A stretch of 61,740 nt of DNA from a virus, in IMG/VR virus record IMGVR_UViG_3300045919_000425, positions 97,199 to 158,938 of that record. The stretch is one strand, 5' to 3'. Of the stretch, positions 6,410 through 16,606 are shown in pieces. The notes under the pieces were generated by a model. It was not told the origin of the DNA, did not search any database, and worked only from the letters and a program-made list of their open reading frames with translations. A program made the position numbers and the translations under genes. Within the stretch, counting starts at the first letter, position 1. Each line of letters starts with the position of its first letter.

Positions 6410-7141
6410 GTGTTGGAACAAGATTTCTTAAGAAGTATTCTGCACTACAATACAGAATCAGGAGAACTGGTTTGGCGTAATAATAGCGGGAGGTGGACAA
6501 AAAGAGAGGATGGAAGAAACCCTTGTCATTATGATAAAGATGGATATCTCATTCTGGTAATTCAGGGTAAGAAATATAAGGCTCATAGGATTGCCTGGTT
6601 CTATTGCCATAATGAGTGGCCAGAACAGATTAATCACATAAATGGAGTGCCTGACGACAACCGTCTTGCTAATTTAGAAGCAAGCAATCAGAGAGCTAAC
6701 TGTCAAAACAGGGTCGAGCATAGGAATGGAGGCTTGGTTGGGGTAAGGTACAAGGAAGGTAAAGTGTACGAGTCATATATAAACGTGGAACTAATAAACT
6801 ATTTCCTTGGAACCTACGACACAGATGAAGAAGCTCATAAGGCTCATGTGATCGCCACTAATCAAGCACTTAATGGAACTTTTCATGATTGGTTGATTAA
6901 ACATCGCATAGAAAGAGAGAGGGTTTTAATAGAAAGAAGGAAAAAGAGAACCGTATCTCATATATCGCAAAGGGGGAAAAGTTACATACTTAGAATAACT
7001 TATGAAAACGTAAGGTACTTAGTACTACACTCAGCCTATAAGGAAGAAGTTGAGAAGTATAAGACAGTAGTTGATGACTTATTCCGAGAAGGAAAATTTG
7101 ATCCCTCGGTTCACTGCATAAGAAAGAAGAAAACCAATTAA
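6410..7141 (+). CDS. HNH endonuclease (free-standing homing type)
   Basis: About 243 residues. The start is GTG at 6410 or TTG at 6413; AAGGGAG at 6401-6407 is better spaced for the TTG. The HNH core is seen as AHRIAWFYCHNEWPEQINHINGVPDDNRLANLEA-like sequence at about residues 58-92, with INHINGVPDDNRLANL typical of phage HNH enzymes that carry an AP2-like DNA-binding part. A second segment (GLVGVRY... YFLGTYDTDEEAHKAH) matches the AP2-like domain. Such genes usually act as selfish homing enzymes that cut related phage DNA. It is wedged between two unrelated genes. Confidence 0.85.
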   Translation: MLEQDFLRSILHYNTESGELVWRNNSGRWTKREDGRNPCHYDKDGYLILVIQGKKYKAHRIAWFYCHNEWPEQINHINGVPDDNRLANLEASNQRANCQNRVEHRNGGLVGVRYKEGKVYESYINVELINYFLGTYDTDEEAHKAHVIATNQALNGTFHDWLIKHRIERERVLIERRKKRTVSHISQRGKSYILRITYENVRYLVLHSAYKEEVEKYKTVVDDLFREGKFDPSVHCIRKKKTN

Positions 7142-8516: not shown

Positions 8517-10706
8517 ATGAGCGGTGATTTCATGAAATTCAAGAAGCTCCCAGAGTCGGTGAAGTCTAAAATTTTGGACTTAGAAGTTAGTAGGTTCCTT
8601 CGAGGAACGGCAGAGTTCCATCAGGTTGATGGGTATTCCATAAGCATTGTAAAGTTCCGCCTCTCAAAGTCTCAGTTTCCTGACTCGCTCTATCTTTATA
8701 ACGCATGCGTAAGCGAAGGATTTCCGAACGAAGAACTCCAGAACTCGCTCCCATGGGAATTAGGCGAAGATATATCCAAAACACATCCTAACTTATCGTA
8801 TCGCAGTCCTAACGCTCTTTGGAAATTCATTTCTGGCATCCCCGTAACCGATAATATTGGAGAAGGTTACTGTGGAGAACTTGCTCAGGTAGCTTTAACT
8901 AAATCTAGCGAATTAACTGAAGATGAGGAGAATGCACGTATGCAAGATGAAAATATGAACGAATTAAAAGAGTTGAGCCTTCGTATTCAGAATTCTAAGA
9001 TGGGAAGAGAGCAAAAAGAAAAAGTAAAGAAAGAATACCGGAAATTAACCATGCTTGCCCCGCAAACGTCAGAGTCCGCCTTGCAACGTGTATATCTCGA
9101 TACAGTGCTTTCATTGCCATGGAATGAATACGCAGTAGAAACGAATGATCTTATAAGGTCTGAAGAAGTATTAAATAGTAGCCATTATGGATTAAAGGCA
9201 GTAAAAGAAAGAGTTTTAGAGTATTTAGCAGTTAACCAATTCACAGGAACAACCAGCAATGGGACAATGCTTTGTCTTTATGGTCCTCCTGGAGTAGGAA
9301 AAACGTCAATAGCTCAATCCATCGCAGATGCAACAGGCAGGGAACTTGTAACAGTAGCGCTAGGCGGAGTATCAGACGAAGCAGATATCCGTGGACATAG
9401 GAAGACATACATAGGCTCAATGCCTGGAAGAATTATGGCAGCGATAAAAAAAGCAAACAAGATGAATCCGATTATCTTACTAGATGAGATAGATAAGATG
9501 GGCGCAACAAATAAAGGAGACCCAGCCGCAGCATTATTAGAGGTATTAGACCCATCACAAAACAAGAAATTTGTGGATCATTACCTGGAAATGGAATTTG
9601 ACTTGTCTAAGGTTATGTTTATAGCAACAGCAAATAGCTTAAATACAATCTCCTCCCCATTAAGAGATCGCATGGAGATTGTTACATTAACAGGATATAC
9701 AGACCAGGAAAAAGTAGAAATAGGACGCAAACACTTAGCTGTGAGTGTCCTTAAGAAGTCAGGGCTATTAAACAGGGGGATTAAGTTCTCTGTAGAGTCA
9801 ATTGAGGAAATAATCAAACACTATACAAAAGAAGCAGGAGTCCGTAACTTAGAAAAAGAAATGTCTAAAGTTTGTCGTAAGATAGTAAAGTCAGCTTTAG
9901 ACGGGAAGAAAGAGTTGGTGTCTGGAATTAGCCGTATGAGCTTTAAAGGTGCAGAAAAAGATAATGAACGGAATATTACACCTGCAATAGTTAATAAGTT
10001 GCTCGGTGTTCGTAAATTCGAAGATGAGCTTAAGAATAAGAAGAACGAGGTTGGAGTAGCACAAGGTCTGGCTTACACTTCAGTCGGCGGATGTCTTCTG
10101 TTTGTAGAAGTAGCTATCACTAAAGGGAAGGGCGGATTCAAGACTACAGGGCAGTTGGGTGATGTTATGAAAGAATCCTCACAGATCGCATTAACTTACA
10201 TTCAAACTAGAAGTGAAATGTTAGGAATATCTGATGAATTCTTCGAGAAACATAACATTCACATTCACTTTCCTGACGGAAATACGCCAAAAGATGGACC
10301 TTCTGCTGGCATTGCTCTTACTCTAGCTATTACCTCTGCAATTACAGGTATTCCTTATAACAGGAATGTTGCAGGGACAGGTGAAGTCGATTTAAGAGGG
10401 AATGCTTTACCTATTGGTGGAGTAAAGGAGAAAATGATCGGAGCTTATGTGGCAGGCGTATCTCAGGTATTTATCCCTAGAACTAATATTAAGGATTTAT
10501 ACGAAGTATCCGATGAGATTAAGGGTAAGATAGAAATACTTCCTATTTCTTGTGCAGAAGAAGCGCTTTTAATAGCTTTAGATTTCAATACCCCGAAAGC
10601 ACTAGAAGTAAAGCAAAAAATAAGTGACTTTCTATTCTTAAATGGAGTCTCTGCCGTCACTGTTAAGCATTCATTAGAGTCTCATCCGAGTTTATCCAGT
10701 AAGTAA
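8517..10706 (+). CDS. lon: ATP-dependent Lon protease
   Basis: 729 residues; CCAGGAGG precedes the ATG. The AAA+ part has Walker A GPPGVGKT at 256-263, the Lon hallmark GHRKTYIGSMPGR near 293-305, Walker B ILLDEID at 320-326 and ATANS sensor 1. The protease domain has the Ser-Lys dyad: S596 in PKDGPSAG and K639 in GGVKEKM, 43 residues apart as in E. coli (S679/K722). The N-terminal substrate domain (~200 residues before the ATPase) is shorter and diverged. The enzyme should be an active cytoplasmic protease. In a phage it could clear host regulators or antiphage proteins, or process virion proteins; the target is unknown. It ends at an 11-bp hairpin. Confidence 0.95.
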   Translation: MSGDFMKFKKLPESVKSKILDLEVSRFLRGTAEFHQVDGYSISIVKFRLSKSQFPDSLYLYNACVSEGFPNEELQNSLPWELGEDISKTHPNLSYRSPNALWKFISGIPVTDNIGEGYCGELAQVALTKSSELTEDEENARMQDENMNELKELSLRIQNSKMGREQKEKVKKEYRKLTMLAPQTSESALQRVYLDTVLSLPWNEYAVETNDLIRSEEVLNSSHYGLKAVKERVLEYLAVNQFTGTTSNGTMLCLYGPPGVGKTSIAQSIADATGRELVTVALGGVSDEADIRGHRKTYIGSMPGRIMAAIKKANKMNPIILLDEIDKMGATNKGDPAAALLEVLDPSQNKKFVDHYLEMEFDLSKVMFIATANSLNTISSPLRDRMEIVTLTGYTDQEKVEIGRKHLAVSVLKKSGLLNRGIKFSVESIEEIIKHYTKEAGVRNLEKEMSKVCRKIVKSALDGKKELVSGISRMSFKGAEKDNERNITPAIVNKLLGVRKFEDELKNKKNEVGVAQGLAYTSVGGCLLFVEVAITKGKGGFKTTGQLGDVMKESSQIALTYIQTRSEMLGISDEFFEKHNIHIHFPDGNTPKDGPSAGIALTLAITSAITGIPYNRNVAGTGEVDLRGNALPIGGVKEKMIGAYVAGVSQVFIPRTNIKDLYEVSDEIKGKIEILPISCAEEALLIALDFNTPKALEVKQKISDFLFLNGVSAVTVKHSLESHPSLSSK

Positions 10707-11783: not shown

Positions 11784-12349
11784 GTTATTTGCCATTAAGC
11801 CCTATTAAAGTAAGCCCAGGTATCGCTATAGGTGGGATTGCTATTTCAATGATAGTTGGCGGAGTATTAACAAAAACCCTATTGCCAACAAAGACCATAG
11901 AGATTACTAAGACGATAGAAATAGAGAAGAAGACAGAACTAAAGTCGGATAAAACAATAGCGCAGTCTTCAGATAATTTAGTGCAGGATAATGTAATTAC
12001 TTACACTACAATAAAAAGAAAAGACGGTACCGTAATTACTACCGAAAAGATAGATAAATCAATTAAGCATAATAAAGAAAATACCACTTCCCATGATAAA
12101 CAGGAAGTGGTGAAAGAAGAGCATGAGTTTTCTAGGGAGGATAAGAAGATTACTGAATTAAACAAGTCAAGTAATTGGGGATTAGGCTTATCATACAAGG
12201 CTTCTAATTTTAGGGATATTTCTTTAGAGTATCCAAATGTAAAGAACTTAGGAGGGTCTTTAGAGTACAAGGCATTAGACACTTTAGGGTTTCAGTTACA
12301 GGTCTTTACAGACCTTTCCGCAACTCTAACAGTGAAGTACTGGTTTTAG
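11780..12349 (+). CDS. Membrane-anchored hypothetical protein
   Basis: 189 residues, overlapping the preceding gene by ATGA. One N-terminal membrane segment (about residues 14-36, Gly/Ile/Val-rich), then a long Lys/Glu/Thr linker with the repeated-type TKTIEITKTIEIEKK, then a C-terminal beta-rich region ending in KYWF. This layout is common in phage envelope proteins; a spanin-like or lysis-related role is possible but unproved. A 9-bp intragenic hairpin lies at 12083-12111. The gene overlaps the convergent dnaE 3' half by 44 bases. Confidence 0.65.
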   Translation: MSYLPLSPIKVSPGIAIGGIAISMIVGGVLTKTLLPTKTIEITKTIEIEKKTELKSDKTIAQSSDNLVQDNVITYTTIKRKDGTVITTEKIDKSIKHNKENTTSHDKQEVVKEEHEFSREDKKITELNKSSNWGLGLSYKASNFRDISLEYPNVKNLGGSLEYKALDTLGFQLQVFTDLSATLTVKYWF

Positions 12350-12806
12350 TCTTTTTCATTGATTCCTTCTTTGGAGCTTTCTCTTTCACAATCTTCTTAG
12401 AACATATATCTTCCAAATTAAAGCTTAGAAATTTCTCCAGATTAGCAGCAAAAGCACCTCCAACTCCCTTGAGTGAAGAAAGAGGCGGCCTAAGCTTATC
12501 CCCTTCAATGGTAAATTCAGATGGATGACTTTTAAGAATATCTGCCGGAAGAATCATTTCTGACAATTCTTTTGAATACTCTCTGAGCTTATCCCTATCA
12601 GCAGATTCGGCAGAAAGCTCAGCAAGCCAAAAATCCATCGGGTAATGCTTCTTTAGGAATGCTGAATTATATGAAACAATTGAATAAGAACAGTTGTGAG
12701 CTACAGTACCGTTTTCAAGTACAAAGTTGTGGTTAGTCGGCATAACTAGATCAAACACTTGCTGTTCACCTAACGACTTAACACTCTTCACCTTTAATTT
12801 CTTCAT
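12306..12806 (-). CDS. dnaE: Split intein C-half fused to the C-terminal part of DNA polymerase III alpha
   Basis: 166 residues with its own strong ribosome site (AAGGAGG then ATG at 12806). Residues 1-38 are an intein C-terminal half: VFDLVMPTNHNFVLENG (block F) and TVAHN followed by Cys (block G, the His-Asn-Cys splice junction). From C39, CSYSIVSYNSAFLKKHYP continues the DnaE fold exactly where the N-half gene breaks off (compare FNKSHSAAYALV... in bacterial DnaE). The C-extein is 128 residues, including a helix-hairpin-helix-like SLKGVGGAFAANL. Protein trans-splicing with the product of the gene at 13760-16579 would give a polymerase of ~959 residues. It overlaps the endonuclease gene by 29 bases. 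Confidence 0.92.
   Translation of the reverse strand: MKKLKVKSVKSLGEQQVFDLVMPTNHNFVLENGTVAHNCSYSIVSYNSAFLKKHYPMDFWLAELSAESADRDKLREYSKELSEMILPADILKSHPSEFTIEGDKLRPPLSSLKGVGGAFAANLEKFLSFNLEDICSKKIVKEKAPKKESMKKTKTSTSLLELRKGL
12693..12806 (-). other. Intein C-half (IntC, 38 residues)
   Basis: It holds intein blocks F and G with the terminal His-Asn and the +1 Cys in the extein (TGT at 12690-12692). Its size is close to known split-intein C-halves (about 35-40 residues). Confidence 0.9.
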
Positions 12807-13803
12807 AAATCCTCCTTAGTTCAGATTCCCATGTTTCTTGTTGATCATCCCAGAATACTAGTAAATCCTTACCGTTCTCCTCGGCTATCTTCTTCTTGAA
12901 TTCATCATTCTTAATATTCTTGGTTACTACATCCCTTAAAATTTCTTTAGTGTAATCATGCCACACTCGCCCGTGCATTTCGAATAAAGTATTAATCTTA
13001 GGGGAATAAATATCAAAACTACGATACCTACTAAAACACTTAATCCTATACTCCATAACAGCAGCAGGATCATACTCCTTCACCATCCCATATAGCTTCT
13101 GTTGAGGCTTAGTGACTCTCCACTTAGATAGCATTTGCGATCCCATCCTAGAAGCGCTCTCAATACACTTAGGCGAAGCTTTCTGTCCTTTACTTATAAA
13201 CAAGCCTCGTCTTTTAATGTTCATACTAACCACCTCCTCTATTGGTAATTCAAGCAAGTAAGCAATCACGGCATTTTGTTGATTATGACCTCTTTTTTCC
13301 GGGTCTTGAATCTCAACCTCACAGAACTGATACATGAAATCAGGAAATAACTTACTTAGCTTGCTGTGAATATCTTTAAAAGGAAGTGTCTCATCTTTCT
13401 TAAAATTACTAAACAGTTCTTTACTTTTTCTCCTTATCTTATCTACAGGATAGTTTTTTATACGAGTCTTACATGCAGGGTTATTAAGACCTACCCTTTT
13501 CTTACTCATAGTGTTAGCACTAGAACTCCTCATAACTCCGGTAGCACGAGGAGGGATAAAAACCCAGTCTTCGAGTGAATTAACTTTCTCAAGAACTCTA
13601 ATCCACCAGTCAGTGTAAGCAATACTATCAGTCCCGTCAGACTTCAACCAAGCAATATGGTTAACTCTTACACGGTCAATCATTGTAAGTACTTCACTCT
13701 TCCAATCTTCTGAAGAAGTGCACTTAGGGCCAGTAATATGAACCCTTAAGGTATTACCTTTAACGTTCTTTCCGCACCGGCATGTAACATAACTCATTTT
13801 CAT
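12778..13803 (-). CDS. Vsr-like homing endonuclease lying between the split intein halves
   Basis: 341 residues (ATG at 13803 or 13797; only a weak ribosome site, so translation is probably coupled to the upstream gene). The C-terminal ~100 residues match the Vsr/EDxHD nuclease pattern: TKPQQKLYGMVKE, then SFDIYSPKINTLFEMHGRVWH, then KNDEFKKKIAEENGKDLLVFW with conserved D, E, H and K. The N-terminus has a possible zinc site (CRC...H...C). KKRVGLNNPACK resembles a NUMOD DNA-binding helix. It overlaps dnaE-N/IntN by 44 bases and IntC/dnaE-C by 29, each in a different frame. Vsr-like enzymes are the known partners of fractured genes with split inteins, so it probably cuts intein-less dnaE alleles. 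Confidence 0.85.
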   Translation of the reverse strand: MKMSYVTCRCGKNVKGNTLRVHITGPKCTSSEDWKSEVLTMIDRVRVNHIAWLKSDGTDSIAYTDWWIRVLEKVNSLEDWVFIPPRATGVMRSSSANTMSKKRVGLNNPACKTRIKNYPVDKIRRKSKELFSNFKKDETLPFKDIHSKLSKLFPDFMYQFCEVEIQDPEKRGHNQQNAVIAYLLELPIEEVVSMNIKRRGLFISKGQKASPKCIESASRMGSQMLSKWRVTKPQQKLYGMVKEYDPAAVMEYRIKCFSRYRSFDIYSPKINTLFEMHGRVWHDYTKEILRDVVTKNIKNDEFKKKIAEENGKDLLVFWDDQQETWESELRRIYEEIKGEEC

Positions 13804-16579
13804 CTAGCATAGACCATTCTCCCCCATCCTTGATTGCGTGATTCAACTCCACCCATTGCCCATTATACCACACTCTATGGTCACTCGTAAGCTGAATTTT
13901 ACTTCCGTCCTCAAACTCAACCTCAAAAACTTCCTTTATACCTTGATTCAGTAGCTCCAATGGCTTCTCATATTTAACAGCGCCATCTTGATCGATAAAC
14001 TTAACTTCAGGAAGATTATCATTACTCATATCGCCTATCTTTACATTACCGATAGAAGTTTGAATTTCTTGCTCGGAAAATACACAACTATGACTCCTAT
14101 TAAATCCGTATTTTCCGCTAGCTTCAATCATCTCACCTAACTCCTTCGCTTGTTCCAAGCTCCACCCTCGCTTATCCATAACGGTACTTTTTAATCCTCC
14201 TAAGTGCTTAATCAATGCCTGAGCGTCTTTTTTTCCAATTGCACGCCTAACTCCCTCAGCGTCTTCGTATGTGTACCCACCAAGATCACGAAACACTCTT
14301 AAGGTCTGTTCCTGAAATAAAGGAACACCAAAGGTAGATTCAAATATTGGAATCATGTCAGGATGGATGTATCTCGGAGACAACTTACCTGACGAGCATT
14401 GAATGTAATATTCAACCGCATTTCCTTTAAAATCCTCCCTGTCAATTATCCAGTCCAGGCATGATGGCCTATAAAGAGCAATAAGGTTAGAAATTTGGTC
14501 AATATTTTTAGGTTTAGTCTGAATACAAAGATTCGTAATTCCCTTTGTCTTAGTTTGAAATGTCGCTGAGGTATCTCCTGTGTGGTAAATATCCTCATAA
14601 ACTTTCGGATCTTGTCTGAATAGTTCCCATTTCATCACCTCTCCGGTTCTTTTCTTTATGTTATTCATCGCTCTTTGTATTGTATTAAGAGCCGTGACTC
14701 CTAAAATATCAACCTTTAATCCACCCACATATTCTACGTCTTTAGGACTAAAAGCCGCAGCTAACGTCGCTTTCTTGCCAGCGCCAACTCGACAAAGAGG
14801 CATAAAGTGATGAATAGGCTCATCCGCAACAATCACAGCACAAGCATGCACGGACTTTTGACGAGAAATTCCACACATAGCTAGCACGGACTCCCAGATC
14901 TCTGGATTGTTCTTCGCATAAAGCTGTAAGTCTGGCGCATCTTCAAAATATCCCTTTACGTGCTCCCCTTCCTGATTTGTATATCCAAACATCCAGTCAT
15001 TCTCAGATATCCCTTGAGGTATCTGAGGCATCTTGATAGTCATCCTGTTCGTTTCTTCCCGCACGCTTCCTAAAATGAACCGCTCTGAATCCTTAATGGC
15101 AGATTTTGGCTTCATCAAAATATCTATAGAGAGTGGAACCATATGGGTTCCGTATTTTTCTTTCATTAGGTCGAGAATTTTATGCTTATCAGAAAAGTCC
15201 ATATCAAAGTCTGGAGGAGTATTTGCATTAATACGACCCCTCGTAAGAAACCGCTCAAATGGTAAGTCGTATTCTAATGAATTTGTAACGGAAATCCCAA
15301 GAGCGTTAGCAAGTAAGCAACCACCGCCAGAACCACGTAGCTGCATTAAGATATCGTTCTTTTTTGCCATTTCCGCAATATCTGACACCATAAGAAGGTA
15401 ATTTAAGCCATCTAGTTTCTGATTACTGTTTAGTACGGAAACTTCGTAGTTTAATCGATCCTTGTTCACTTGTTCTGATAAGTCTAAGATTTTAGATTCC
15501 TCCGCTCTTTTAACAATCTCTCTCTTGGGTGTAGTAGATACTTTCGGTATTTTCCATGCCCGTTCATTGATTGTTAAGAATTCGTATCCTGAGAACATAT
15601 CAGCATACGCATGAGTGTTATCAATTAGTTCCTCGAAATCACGGTCAGATAGAATGTCGGAATGGGATTTCCTAGCTTCTTCGACAATTTCACCTGCGCA
15701 CATAACATGTTGAAATTGACTCATAACCCAGCCATCATTTTTAGCATCCTGTGCCACCTTATGAGCCTTTTCCGCATAATGAGCATCTTGACTGAATAGC
15801 GGCTTAATGCCAAGAGATTTAGTTAAAGGCAGCCTTAGTCTGTTAATTTCCCTTTGAATATCAGGGTGGTTAAAATAAGGCTTACATTCGTTAACTTCTA
15901 GTCTGGATGGCAACCCAAGCTCGGCATCTTCTTTTTTATACTGATGAGTCAAATCCTCAACAATTATTTCATCGAATAAGTTCTCTTTACCTATCACATC
16001 AATCATCATGTTAATTCGTTTAGCGGCCTCAGCAAGACCATATCCATCGAGAATAGGTTTGTTGCACCACGATCCTACACAACCCGTACCAACAGTAATT
16101 CCATGACCAGAGAGTTCGATAAACTCCTCCCAATTCATAACGGGCTTACCTTTATAGTACCGCTCATCCGAATAAAGCACGGCAGTTAATTTACAGTAAG
16201 ACTCATACGCAGCCCTTGTCTTAAACCCAATAGTTATATGGGAATAAACCTTACTTTCGTTGCCGTATCTGTCCACTTTTCCTTTCATAATATCATTAGG
16301 CCAGAAAATATAAGCTTCAACCCCATGAATGACTTTCATTCCGAATTCTTTGGCATATCTGTGAACCGAGGCAGCGGAATTCAATGAGCCGTGTTCCGTA
16401 ACTGATACATGAGTCATTCCACATGTTTTCATTCTTTTTACCATAGATTTAACAGTAGACGCACCATCTAATGAACCGCAATCTGTATGAGCATGCACTG
16501 CGCATGCCAGCCTTTTCCCCTTAAACTGATTCTCTCCTTTGAAGGGTGTAAAATCCCACAGACTCTTGACTCCACTCAT
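13760..16579 (-). CDS. dnaE: DNA polymerase III alpha, N-terminal part, fused to split intein N-half
   Basis: 939 residues; AAGGAGG precedes the ATG. Residues 1-831 are a C-family polymerase: PHP domain from HAHTDCGSLDG (29-39) with TEHG at 61-64 and DAHY near 265; GSGGGCLLANALGIS; catalytic PPDFDMDF with D459 and D461; and the third Asp D624 in LKVDILG. EGVRRAIGKKD and KYGFNRSHS complete the fingers. From C832 the remaining 108 residues are an intein N-half (blocks A and B, with LTSDH). The break falls after FNRSHS, seven residues beyond the cyanobacterial DnaE split-intein site. It should be the phage replicase after trans-splicing; the PHP domain could supply proofreading, as no separate exonuclease gene was seen. 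It is driven by promoter P8. Confidence 0.95.
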   Translation of the reverse strand: MSGVKSLWDFTPFKGENQFKGKRLACAVHAHTDCGSLDGASTVKSMVKRMKTCGMTHVSVTEHGSLNSAASVHRYAKEFGMKVIHGVEAYIFWPNDIMKGKVDRYGNESKVYSHITIGFKTRAAYESYCKLTAVLYSDERYYKGKPVMNWEEFIELSGHGITVGTGCVGSWCNKPILDGYGLAEAAKRINMMIDVIGKENLFDEIIVEDLTHQYKKEDAELGLPSRLEVNECKPYFNHPDIQREINRLRLPLTKSLGIKPLFSQDAHYAEKAHKVAQDAKNDGWVMSQFQHVMCAGEIVEEARKSHSDILSDRDFEELIDNTHAYADMFSGYEFLTINERAWKIPKVSTTPKREIVKRAEESKILDLSEQVNKDRLNYEVSVLNSNQKLDGLNYLLMVSDIAEMAKKNDILMQLRGSGGGCLLANALGISVTNSLEYDLPFERFLTRGRINANTPPDFDMDFSDKHKILDLMKEKYGTHMVPLSIDILMKPKSAIKDSERFILGSVREETNRMTIKMPQIPQGISENDWMFGYTNQEGEHVKGYFEDAPDLQLYAKNNPEIWESVLAMCGISRQKSVHACAVIVADEPIHHFMPLCRVGAGKKATLAAAFSPKDVEYVGGLKVDILGVTALNTIQRAMNNIKKRTGEVMKWELFRQDPKVYEDIYHTGDTSATFQTKTKGITNLCIQTKPKNIDQISNLIALYRPSCLDWIIDREDFKGNAVEYYIQCSSGKLSPRYIHPDMIPIFESTFGVPLFQEQTLRVFRDLGGYTYEDAEGVRRAIGKKDAQALIKHLGGLKSTVMDKRGWSLEQAKELGEMIEASGKYGFNRSHSCVFSEQEIQTSIGNVKIGDMSNDNLPEVKFIDQDGAVKYEKPLELLNQGIKEVFEVEFEDGSKIQLTSDHRVWYNGQWVELNHAIKDGGEWSMLDENELCYMPVRKER
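13763..14086 (-). other. Intein N-half (IntN, 108 residues)
   Basis: It starts with Cys (C832 of the fusion). CVFSEQEIQTSIGNVKIGDM is block A and DGSKIQLTSDHRVWYNGQW is block B with the TxxH motif. There is no endonuclease domain in this frame. The frame ends about where a cis-intein would carry its homing domain. Confidence 0.9.
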
Positions 16580-16606
16580 AATTCCTCCTTATGTTGGTTT
16601 AAAGAC

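What the first reader, a model, noticed from the sequence alone, without database searches (positions are those of the whole stretch)
12306..16579. Fractured dnaE: split intein halves with a Vsr-like endonuclease gene overlapping both
Seen: the polymerase alpha gene stops after FNRSHS and continues as an intein N-half (108 residues). A separate gene 954 bases further on begins with a 38-residue intein C-half ending His-Asn and continues CSYSIVSYNSAFL. Each part has its own AAGGAGG and ATG. Between them is a 341-residue gene with a Vsr-type nuclease pattern, overlapping the two by 44 and 29 bases in different frames. Known: fractured genes with split inteins and Vsr-like endonucleases were described from environmental phage-like sequence (helicase, ribonucleotide reductase and others). 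The well-known cyanobacterial DnaE split intein lies before CFNKSHS; here the site is seven residues further on. Inference: the polymerase is rebuilt by protein trans-splicing, and the endonuclease spreads the locus into intein-less dnaE. It may be an independent split-intein site in a phage replicase.
Basis: partly seen in the sequence, partly recalled or inferred. Interest (0 to 1): 0.95.

Follow-up and report, generated by a model that had tools for sequence, protein, structure and literature searches.

The report
Phage replicase split by trans-splicing intein
A bacterial virus carries its DNA-copying enzyme in separate gene pieces, two of which are predicted to be stitched together after translation by a split self-splicing protein element that has a DNA-cutting gene lodged inside it; the arrangement is known in phages, but this exact insertion point and the third, displaced piece of the enzyme look new.

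Summary
On the minus strand, dnaE runs as N-half plus IntN (16579-13760), a 341-aa nuclease (13803-12778) and IntC plus C-half (12806-12306), in three frames with overlaps of 44 and 29 bases. Profile searches confirm DnaE domains, both intein ends and an EDxHD/Vsr-type nuclease domain. The cassette is therefore a 'fractured gene', expected to yield a 959-aa polymerase by trans-splicing. No splicing assay exists.

Four additions. (1) The closest relative found (L019, 33% identical) has an uninterrupted site. (2) A second phage contig (L018) has the same gene order with its intein three residues upstream, and other phage contigs carry contiguous DnaE inteins close by; none of the 80-odd phage dnaE loci fetched shares this site. 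(3) The spliced 959 residues are not the whole enzyme: the C-terminal part appears to be a third gene about 15 kb away on the opposite strand, beside the SSB gene, where relatives L019 and Mx1 keep dnaE. (4) The nuclease has Gln where most relatives have the first catalytic Glu, and lacks a clear ribosome-binding site, so current homing activity is doubtful.

Verdict: a new variant of the known fractured-gene arrangement, not a new kind.

The parts
14087..16579 (-). DnaE N-extein, 831 aa: PHP, palm/NTPase and finger domains, ending KYGFNRSHS
   Evidence: Pfam PHP 1e-20, DNA_pol3_alpha 6.8e-42, finger 2.4e-29; coordinates
13763..14086 (-). IntN, 108 aa (CVFSEQEIQ...; block B LTSDHR); stop codon at 13760-13762
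   Evidence: NCBIfam intein_Nterm 7.6e-5, Pfam Intein_splicing 0.0033, Ssp DnaE intein structure
12778..13803 (-). 341-aa nuclease gene between the halves, overlapping both
   Evidence: ORF; PHROG 559 1.6e-6 and PHROG 9084 homing endonuclease 7.5e-4
12781..13113 (-). EDxHD/Vsr-type nuclease domain, nuclease residues 231-341: Q234 at the Glu position, D264, E275, H282
   Evidence: held-out profile of seven phage EDxHD/Hef nucleases picks this ORF at 5.4e-16 among 1274 ORFs of the record, next best 1.9; family profile hits 3R3P 8e-5; residue numbers
12693..12806 (-). IntC, 38 aa, ending VAHN
   Evidence: Pfam Intein_splicing 1.3e-5; NCBIfam intein_Cterm 7.4e-5, above its curated cut-off
12309..12692 (-). 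DnaE C-extein, 128 aa (CSYSIVSYNSAFL...), ending in the first part of the HHH domain; stop codon 12306-12308
   Evidence: phrog_405 DNA polymerase 1.2e-14; 44% identity to the intact relative L019 over the aligned part
16584..16590 (-). AAGGAGG ribosome-binding site of the N-half
   Evidence: sequence
12811..12817 (-). AAGGAGG ribosome-binding site of the C-half, inside the 3' end of the nuclease gene
   Evidence: sequence

Best explanation
The cassette is a fractured gene. Two separately translated halves of a phage DNA polymerase III alpha subunit carry the two parts of a class 1 split intein (Cys1, TxxH block B, penultimate His, terminal Asn, Cys+1). The halves associate through IntN and IntC and splice in trans, restoring ...YGFNRSHS-CSYSIVSYN... 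and the 959-residue catalytic core. Between them sits a free-standing EDxHD (Vsr-like) nuclease gene that probably entered the intein at the usual endonuclease position, broke the reading frame, and spread or once spread the cassette by cutting intein-less dnaE. The rest of alpha (second half of HHH plus the C-terminal part) is probably made from a third gene at record 93736-94782 (+) and must bind non-covalently. Shown: gene anatomy, domains, intein motifs, nuclease family, an uninterrupted-site relative, a parallel locus, and synteny of the third gene. Inferred: splicing, homing, subunit assembly.
For: Domains and motifs. Uninterrupted-site relative L019 runs across the predicted junction: YSFNKAHS|ASYAIVGYN against YGFNRSHS|CSYSIVSYN. 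Parallel fractured dnaE in L018: N-half+IntN, EDxHD nuclease, IntC+C-half in the same order, site FNR|SHA. Nuclease family. The same architecture is annotated in PolB of phage PTm1 and in MIJ3-type jumbo phages (PMC6892783). Third polymerase gene: phmmer 3.5e-5 and 2.3e-5, hhalign P 1.1e-5 over the SGAMDSLF region, same gene order as L019.
Against: No splicing or cleavage data. The nuclease has Gln234 where relatives usually have Glu and no good ribosome-binding site. The AlphaFold2 models were too poor to use (mean pLDDT 39 and 44). Sequence similarity of the third gene to DnaE is confined to a short stretch; no Pfam family matches it.
Confidence: 0.87

Rival explanations
1. The splicing cassette is real but no longer mobile: the nuclease is a decaying passenger and the fracture is fixed. 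(Compatible with the splicing part of the best explanation; it differs on mobility.)
For: Gln instead of Glu at the first catalytic position and a weak start region; no second phage with this site among the loci fetched.
Against: The nuclease ORF is intact over 341 codons and keeps Asp264, Glu275 and His282. The Staphylococcus phage Maine relative also has Gln there, so Gln may be tolerated.
Confidence: 0.35
2. The two halves work as a non-covalent two-chain polymerase and the intein ends are remnants that do not splice, like a phage ribonucleotide reductase broken in two by a homing endonuclease.
For: Genes-in-pieces without splicing exist (Friedrich et al. 2007, cited in PMC10448857), and the third piece here would have to work that way.
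Against: All splicing residues are present at both ends and both intein halves are full length. A 108-residue IntN tail left on the polymerase next to the FNRSHS motif would be expected to disturb it.
Confidence: 0.06
3. An assembly or sequencing error has broken one contiguous intein with an in-frame nuclease.
For: No raw reads were available.
Against: Three frames would need two indels. The C-half has its own AAGGAGG and ATG inside the nuclease gene. L018 shows the same broken order independently.
Confidence: 0.02
4. The polymerase is a dead gene and the phage uses another replicase.
For: The gene is in pieces and its front part sits apart from the other replication genes.
Against: Intact ORFs, the PDFDMDF catalytic motif kept, and the extein sequence close to an intact relative. 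The rest of the record was not checked for another polymerase family.
Confidence: 0.04

Closest known systems
Fractured genes with split inteins and EDxHD nucleases (Dassa et al. 2009; paper not held, known from memory and as cited in PMC7090010 and PMC12350094)
   Same: Enzyme gene broken by a split intein with a free-standing Vsr-like nuclease gene in between, in phage
   Different: Here in dnaE at FNRSHS|C, with a third polymerase piece displaced about 15 kb; whether the 2009 list includes dnaE could not be checked
PolB split intein with Hef-like nuclease in phages MIJ3, PA5oct and PAC2 (PMC6892783)
   Same: Replicative polymerase, split intein, nuclease gene between the halves, short overlap
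   Different: Family B polymerase, unrelated insertion site
Tenacibaculum phage PTm1 PolB locus (ORF-236 to ORF-241)
   Same: Polymerase annotated in three genes, one junction carrying a split intein with a VSR endonuclease, another nuclease between the remaining pieces
   Different: Family B polymerase; all pieces on one strand and close together
Cyanobacterial DnaE split intein (Ssp, Npu)
   Same: Same host protein, same region of the active site, typical split position, best sequence match of the intein (3e-13)
   Different: Site seven residues upstream, no nuclease gene between the halves (from general knowledge), cellular gene
I-Bth0305I (3R3P) and Hef-type homing endonucleases
   Same: Nuclease domain with the Asp, Glu-His-Gly and Trp-His motifs
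   Different: Glu of the first helix replaced by Gln; the N-terminal DNA-binding part is not recognisably shared

Membership tests
Fractured gene (split intein plus free-standing nuclease) | Conserved enzyme broken in two, each half fused to one intein part | tested here: met
Fractured gene (split intein plus free-standing nuclease) | Separate nuclease gene between the halves | tested here: met
Fractured gene (split intein plus free-standing nuclease) | Trans-splicing restores the enzyme | not testable with these tools
   needs co-expression; only the junction logic was tested against L019
Class 1 intein | Cys1, block B TxxH, penultimate His, terminal Asn, nucleophile at +1 | tested here: met
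   CVFSEQ, LTSDHR, VAHN|C read in the sequence
Cyanobacterial DnaE split intein allele | Insertion before C/G-FNKSHS | tested here: not met
   site is after FNRSHS, seven residues downstream
EDxHD / Vsr-like homing endonuclease | Profile match to the nuclease domain | tested here: met
   held-out profile 5.4e-16; family profile hits 3R3P 8e-5 and Vsr 0.43
EDxHD / Vsr-like homing endonuclease | Conserved first Glu | tested here: not met
   Gln234 aligns there; Staphylococcus phage Maine also has Gln
EDxHD / Vsr-like homing endonuclease | Cuts the intein-less allele | not testable with these tools
   needs the purified enzyme
DNA polymerase III alpha (DnaE) | PHP, palm and finger domains with catalytic Asp residues | tested here: met
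DNA polymerase III alpha (DnaE) | C-terminal HHH/OB region | tested here: inconclusive
   not in the C-half; third gene at record 93736-94782 matches in the HHH part only

The most novel reading that the evidence does not exclude
A phage replicase assembled from three genes by two different routes: a covalent joint made by a split intein at a DnaE site not seen in any other locus examined, and a non-covalent joint to a C-terminal subunit left behind beside the SSB gene when the intein-bearing front of dnaE moved about 15 kb and changed strand.
Probability: 0.6. Interest if true: 0.62.

Novelty: new variant of a known kind. Interest (0 to 1): 0.52.

Why it matters
It shows that the few residues around FNKSHS at the DnaE active site have been invaded by inteins at several closely spaced positions in phages, twice as fractured genes with an EDxHD nuclease. 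This gives a natural series (uninterrupted site, contiguous intein, fractured gene) for studying how split inteins arise. It also supplies a candidate natural split intein, and a replicase whose C-terminal region is a separate subunit, which makes the role of that region testable.

Tried and rejected
Close relatives by single-protein pattern scans: none. tblastn of the whole nuclease in phages: none; only the isolated domain finds weak Hef-like hits. Group I intron explanation: no Rfam intron near the locus; the KLEB27-3 dnaE locus, where the nuclease sits in an insert between the dnaE parts and no intein ends are seen, was set aside as a different arrangement. Read-through of the C-half stop: the apparent blast extension beyond it is noise. 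IntC-based scans found only a contiguous intein in a ribonucleotide reductase gene and nothing in bacterial genomes. AlphaFold2 of the nuclease and of the L019 C-terminal protein: confidence too low, not used. Intein tree: ours next to Ssp DnaE with weak support (68), so no claim of descent. Promoter and terminator scans: no more hits than in shuffles. The Dassa 2009 and Taylor 2011 papers are not held.

Full report
What is there. The window is positions 97199-158938 of a 158,938-base IMG/VR virus record. On the minus strand three ORFs follow each other: a 939-aa protein (16579-13760), a 341-aa protein (13803-12778) and a 166-aa protein (12806-12306). The first is a DnaE-type polymerase (PHP, palm and finger domains) that ends its host sequence with KYGFNRSHS and continues for 108 residues as an intein N-part. 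The third starts with a 38-residue intein C-part ending VAHN and continues as polymerase (CSYSIVSYNSAFL). Both intein ends match curated intein models, the C-part above its cut-off and the N-part just below, and joined they match the Ssp DnaE intein structure at 3e-13. Joining the exteins gives 959 residues. AAGGAGG precedes the two polymerase halves but not the nuclease.

Is it more than chance or error? A single indel cannot join three frames, and the C-half has its own start signals inside the nuclease gene. The same order occurs independently in another virus contig, L018: N-half with IntN, EDxHD nuclease, IntC with C-half. Its intein interrupts FNR|SHA, three residues upstream of the site here. 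The closest polymerase relative, L019 (33% identity), is not interrupted, and its sequence runs across the predicted junction.

The middle gene. No Pfam or NCBIfam family matches above its cut-off, but PHROGs of homing endonucleases do, and the same PHROGs match the L018 nuclease. A profile built from seven phage EDxHD/Hef domains, with this protein left out, picks it alone from 1274 ORFs of the record (5.4e-16 against 1.9 for the next). The family profile finds I-Bth0305I (3R3P) at 8e-5 and Vsr more weakly. Asp264, Glu275 and His282 are kept; the usual first Glu is Gln234. Activity is therefore uncertain, although a Staphylococcus phage relative has Gln as well.

The site. Aligned to E. coli alpha, the break lies after residue 761, against 754 for cyanobacteria. 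Among some 80 phage dnaE loci fetched, none has an insert here. Others have contiguous inteins at FN(K/M)|SH (L020, L023) and FG|SYGFN (L041, L060, L064, L082), and one further upstream (L081). The region is a cluster of insertion sites. A small tree of splicing domains does not group this intein with the L018 one, but support is weak.

A third polymerase piece. The C-half stops inside the HHH domain, much earlier than in Mx1. In L019 dnaE also stops there, and the rest is a separate overlapping ORF. In this record the counterpart is a 348-aa gene at 93736-94782 on the plus strand, just outside the window. Evidence: phmmer 3.5e-5 and 2.3e-5; profile comparison with DnaE C-termini, P 1.1e-5 over the SGAMDSLF segment; and gene order, since a 188-aa HNH-like gene, an SSB-like gene and a UvsX-like gene follow it in the same order as in L019. 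In Mx1 an intact dnaE lies near its ssDNA-binding gene. The simplest reading is that the third piece marks the old dnaE position and the intein-bearing front part moved about 15 kb and changed strand. That history is inference from three genomes.

How it works. Shown: gene anatomy, domains, splicing motifs, nuclease family, an uninterrupted-site relative, a parallel locus, synteny. Inferred: both halves are made, splice in trans, and the 959-residue core binds the third protein; the nuclease spreads, or once spread, the cassette.

What is known. Fractured genes of this kind were described in 2009 (Dassa et al.; from memory, paper not held), and PolB examples are published or annotated: MIJ3 (PMC6892783) and PTm1, whose PolB is annotated in three genes with nuclease genes between them. 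The present locus is a new variant: a dnaE case at a site not seen in the other loci examined, with a displaced third piece.

Noticed in passing
record 93736-94782 (+), outside the window (L103:3737-4783): Candidate C-terminal piece of the polymerase as a separate gene, beside HNH-like and SSB-like genes.
   Followed up: yes
L018:5974-10665: Second fractured dnaE with an EDxHD nuclease, site FNR|SHA; its C-half carries a longer C-terminus than the one here.
   Followed up: partly
L020, L023, L041, L060, L064, L081, L082: Contiguous DnaE inteins in phage contigs at several sites, most of them within ten residues of FNKSHS; L023, L041, L060 and L064 appear to carry HNH-like inserts.
   Followed up: partly
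window 6410-7141 (+): HNH endonuclease (PHROG 99, 8.8e-41), a second nuclease of the mobile type in the window.
   Followed up: no
window 8517-10706 (+): Phage-encoded Lon protease with AAA+ and S16 domains (Lon_C 5.2e-73).
   Followed up: no
record 90421-92190 (L103:422-2191): Nicotinamide/nicotinate phosphoribosyltransferase-like gene (NAPRTase 1.1e-34), suggesting NAD salvage.
   Followed up: no
L102 / L108 (Tenacibaculum phage PTm1): PolB annotated as three genes with EDxHD/VSR-type nuclease genes between them, one junction with a split intein; a parallel to the three-gene DnaE here.
   Followed up: partly
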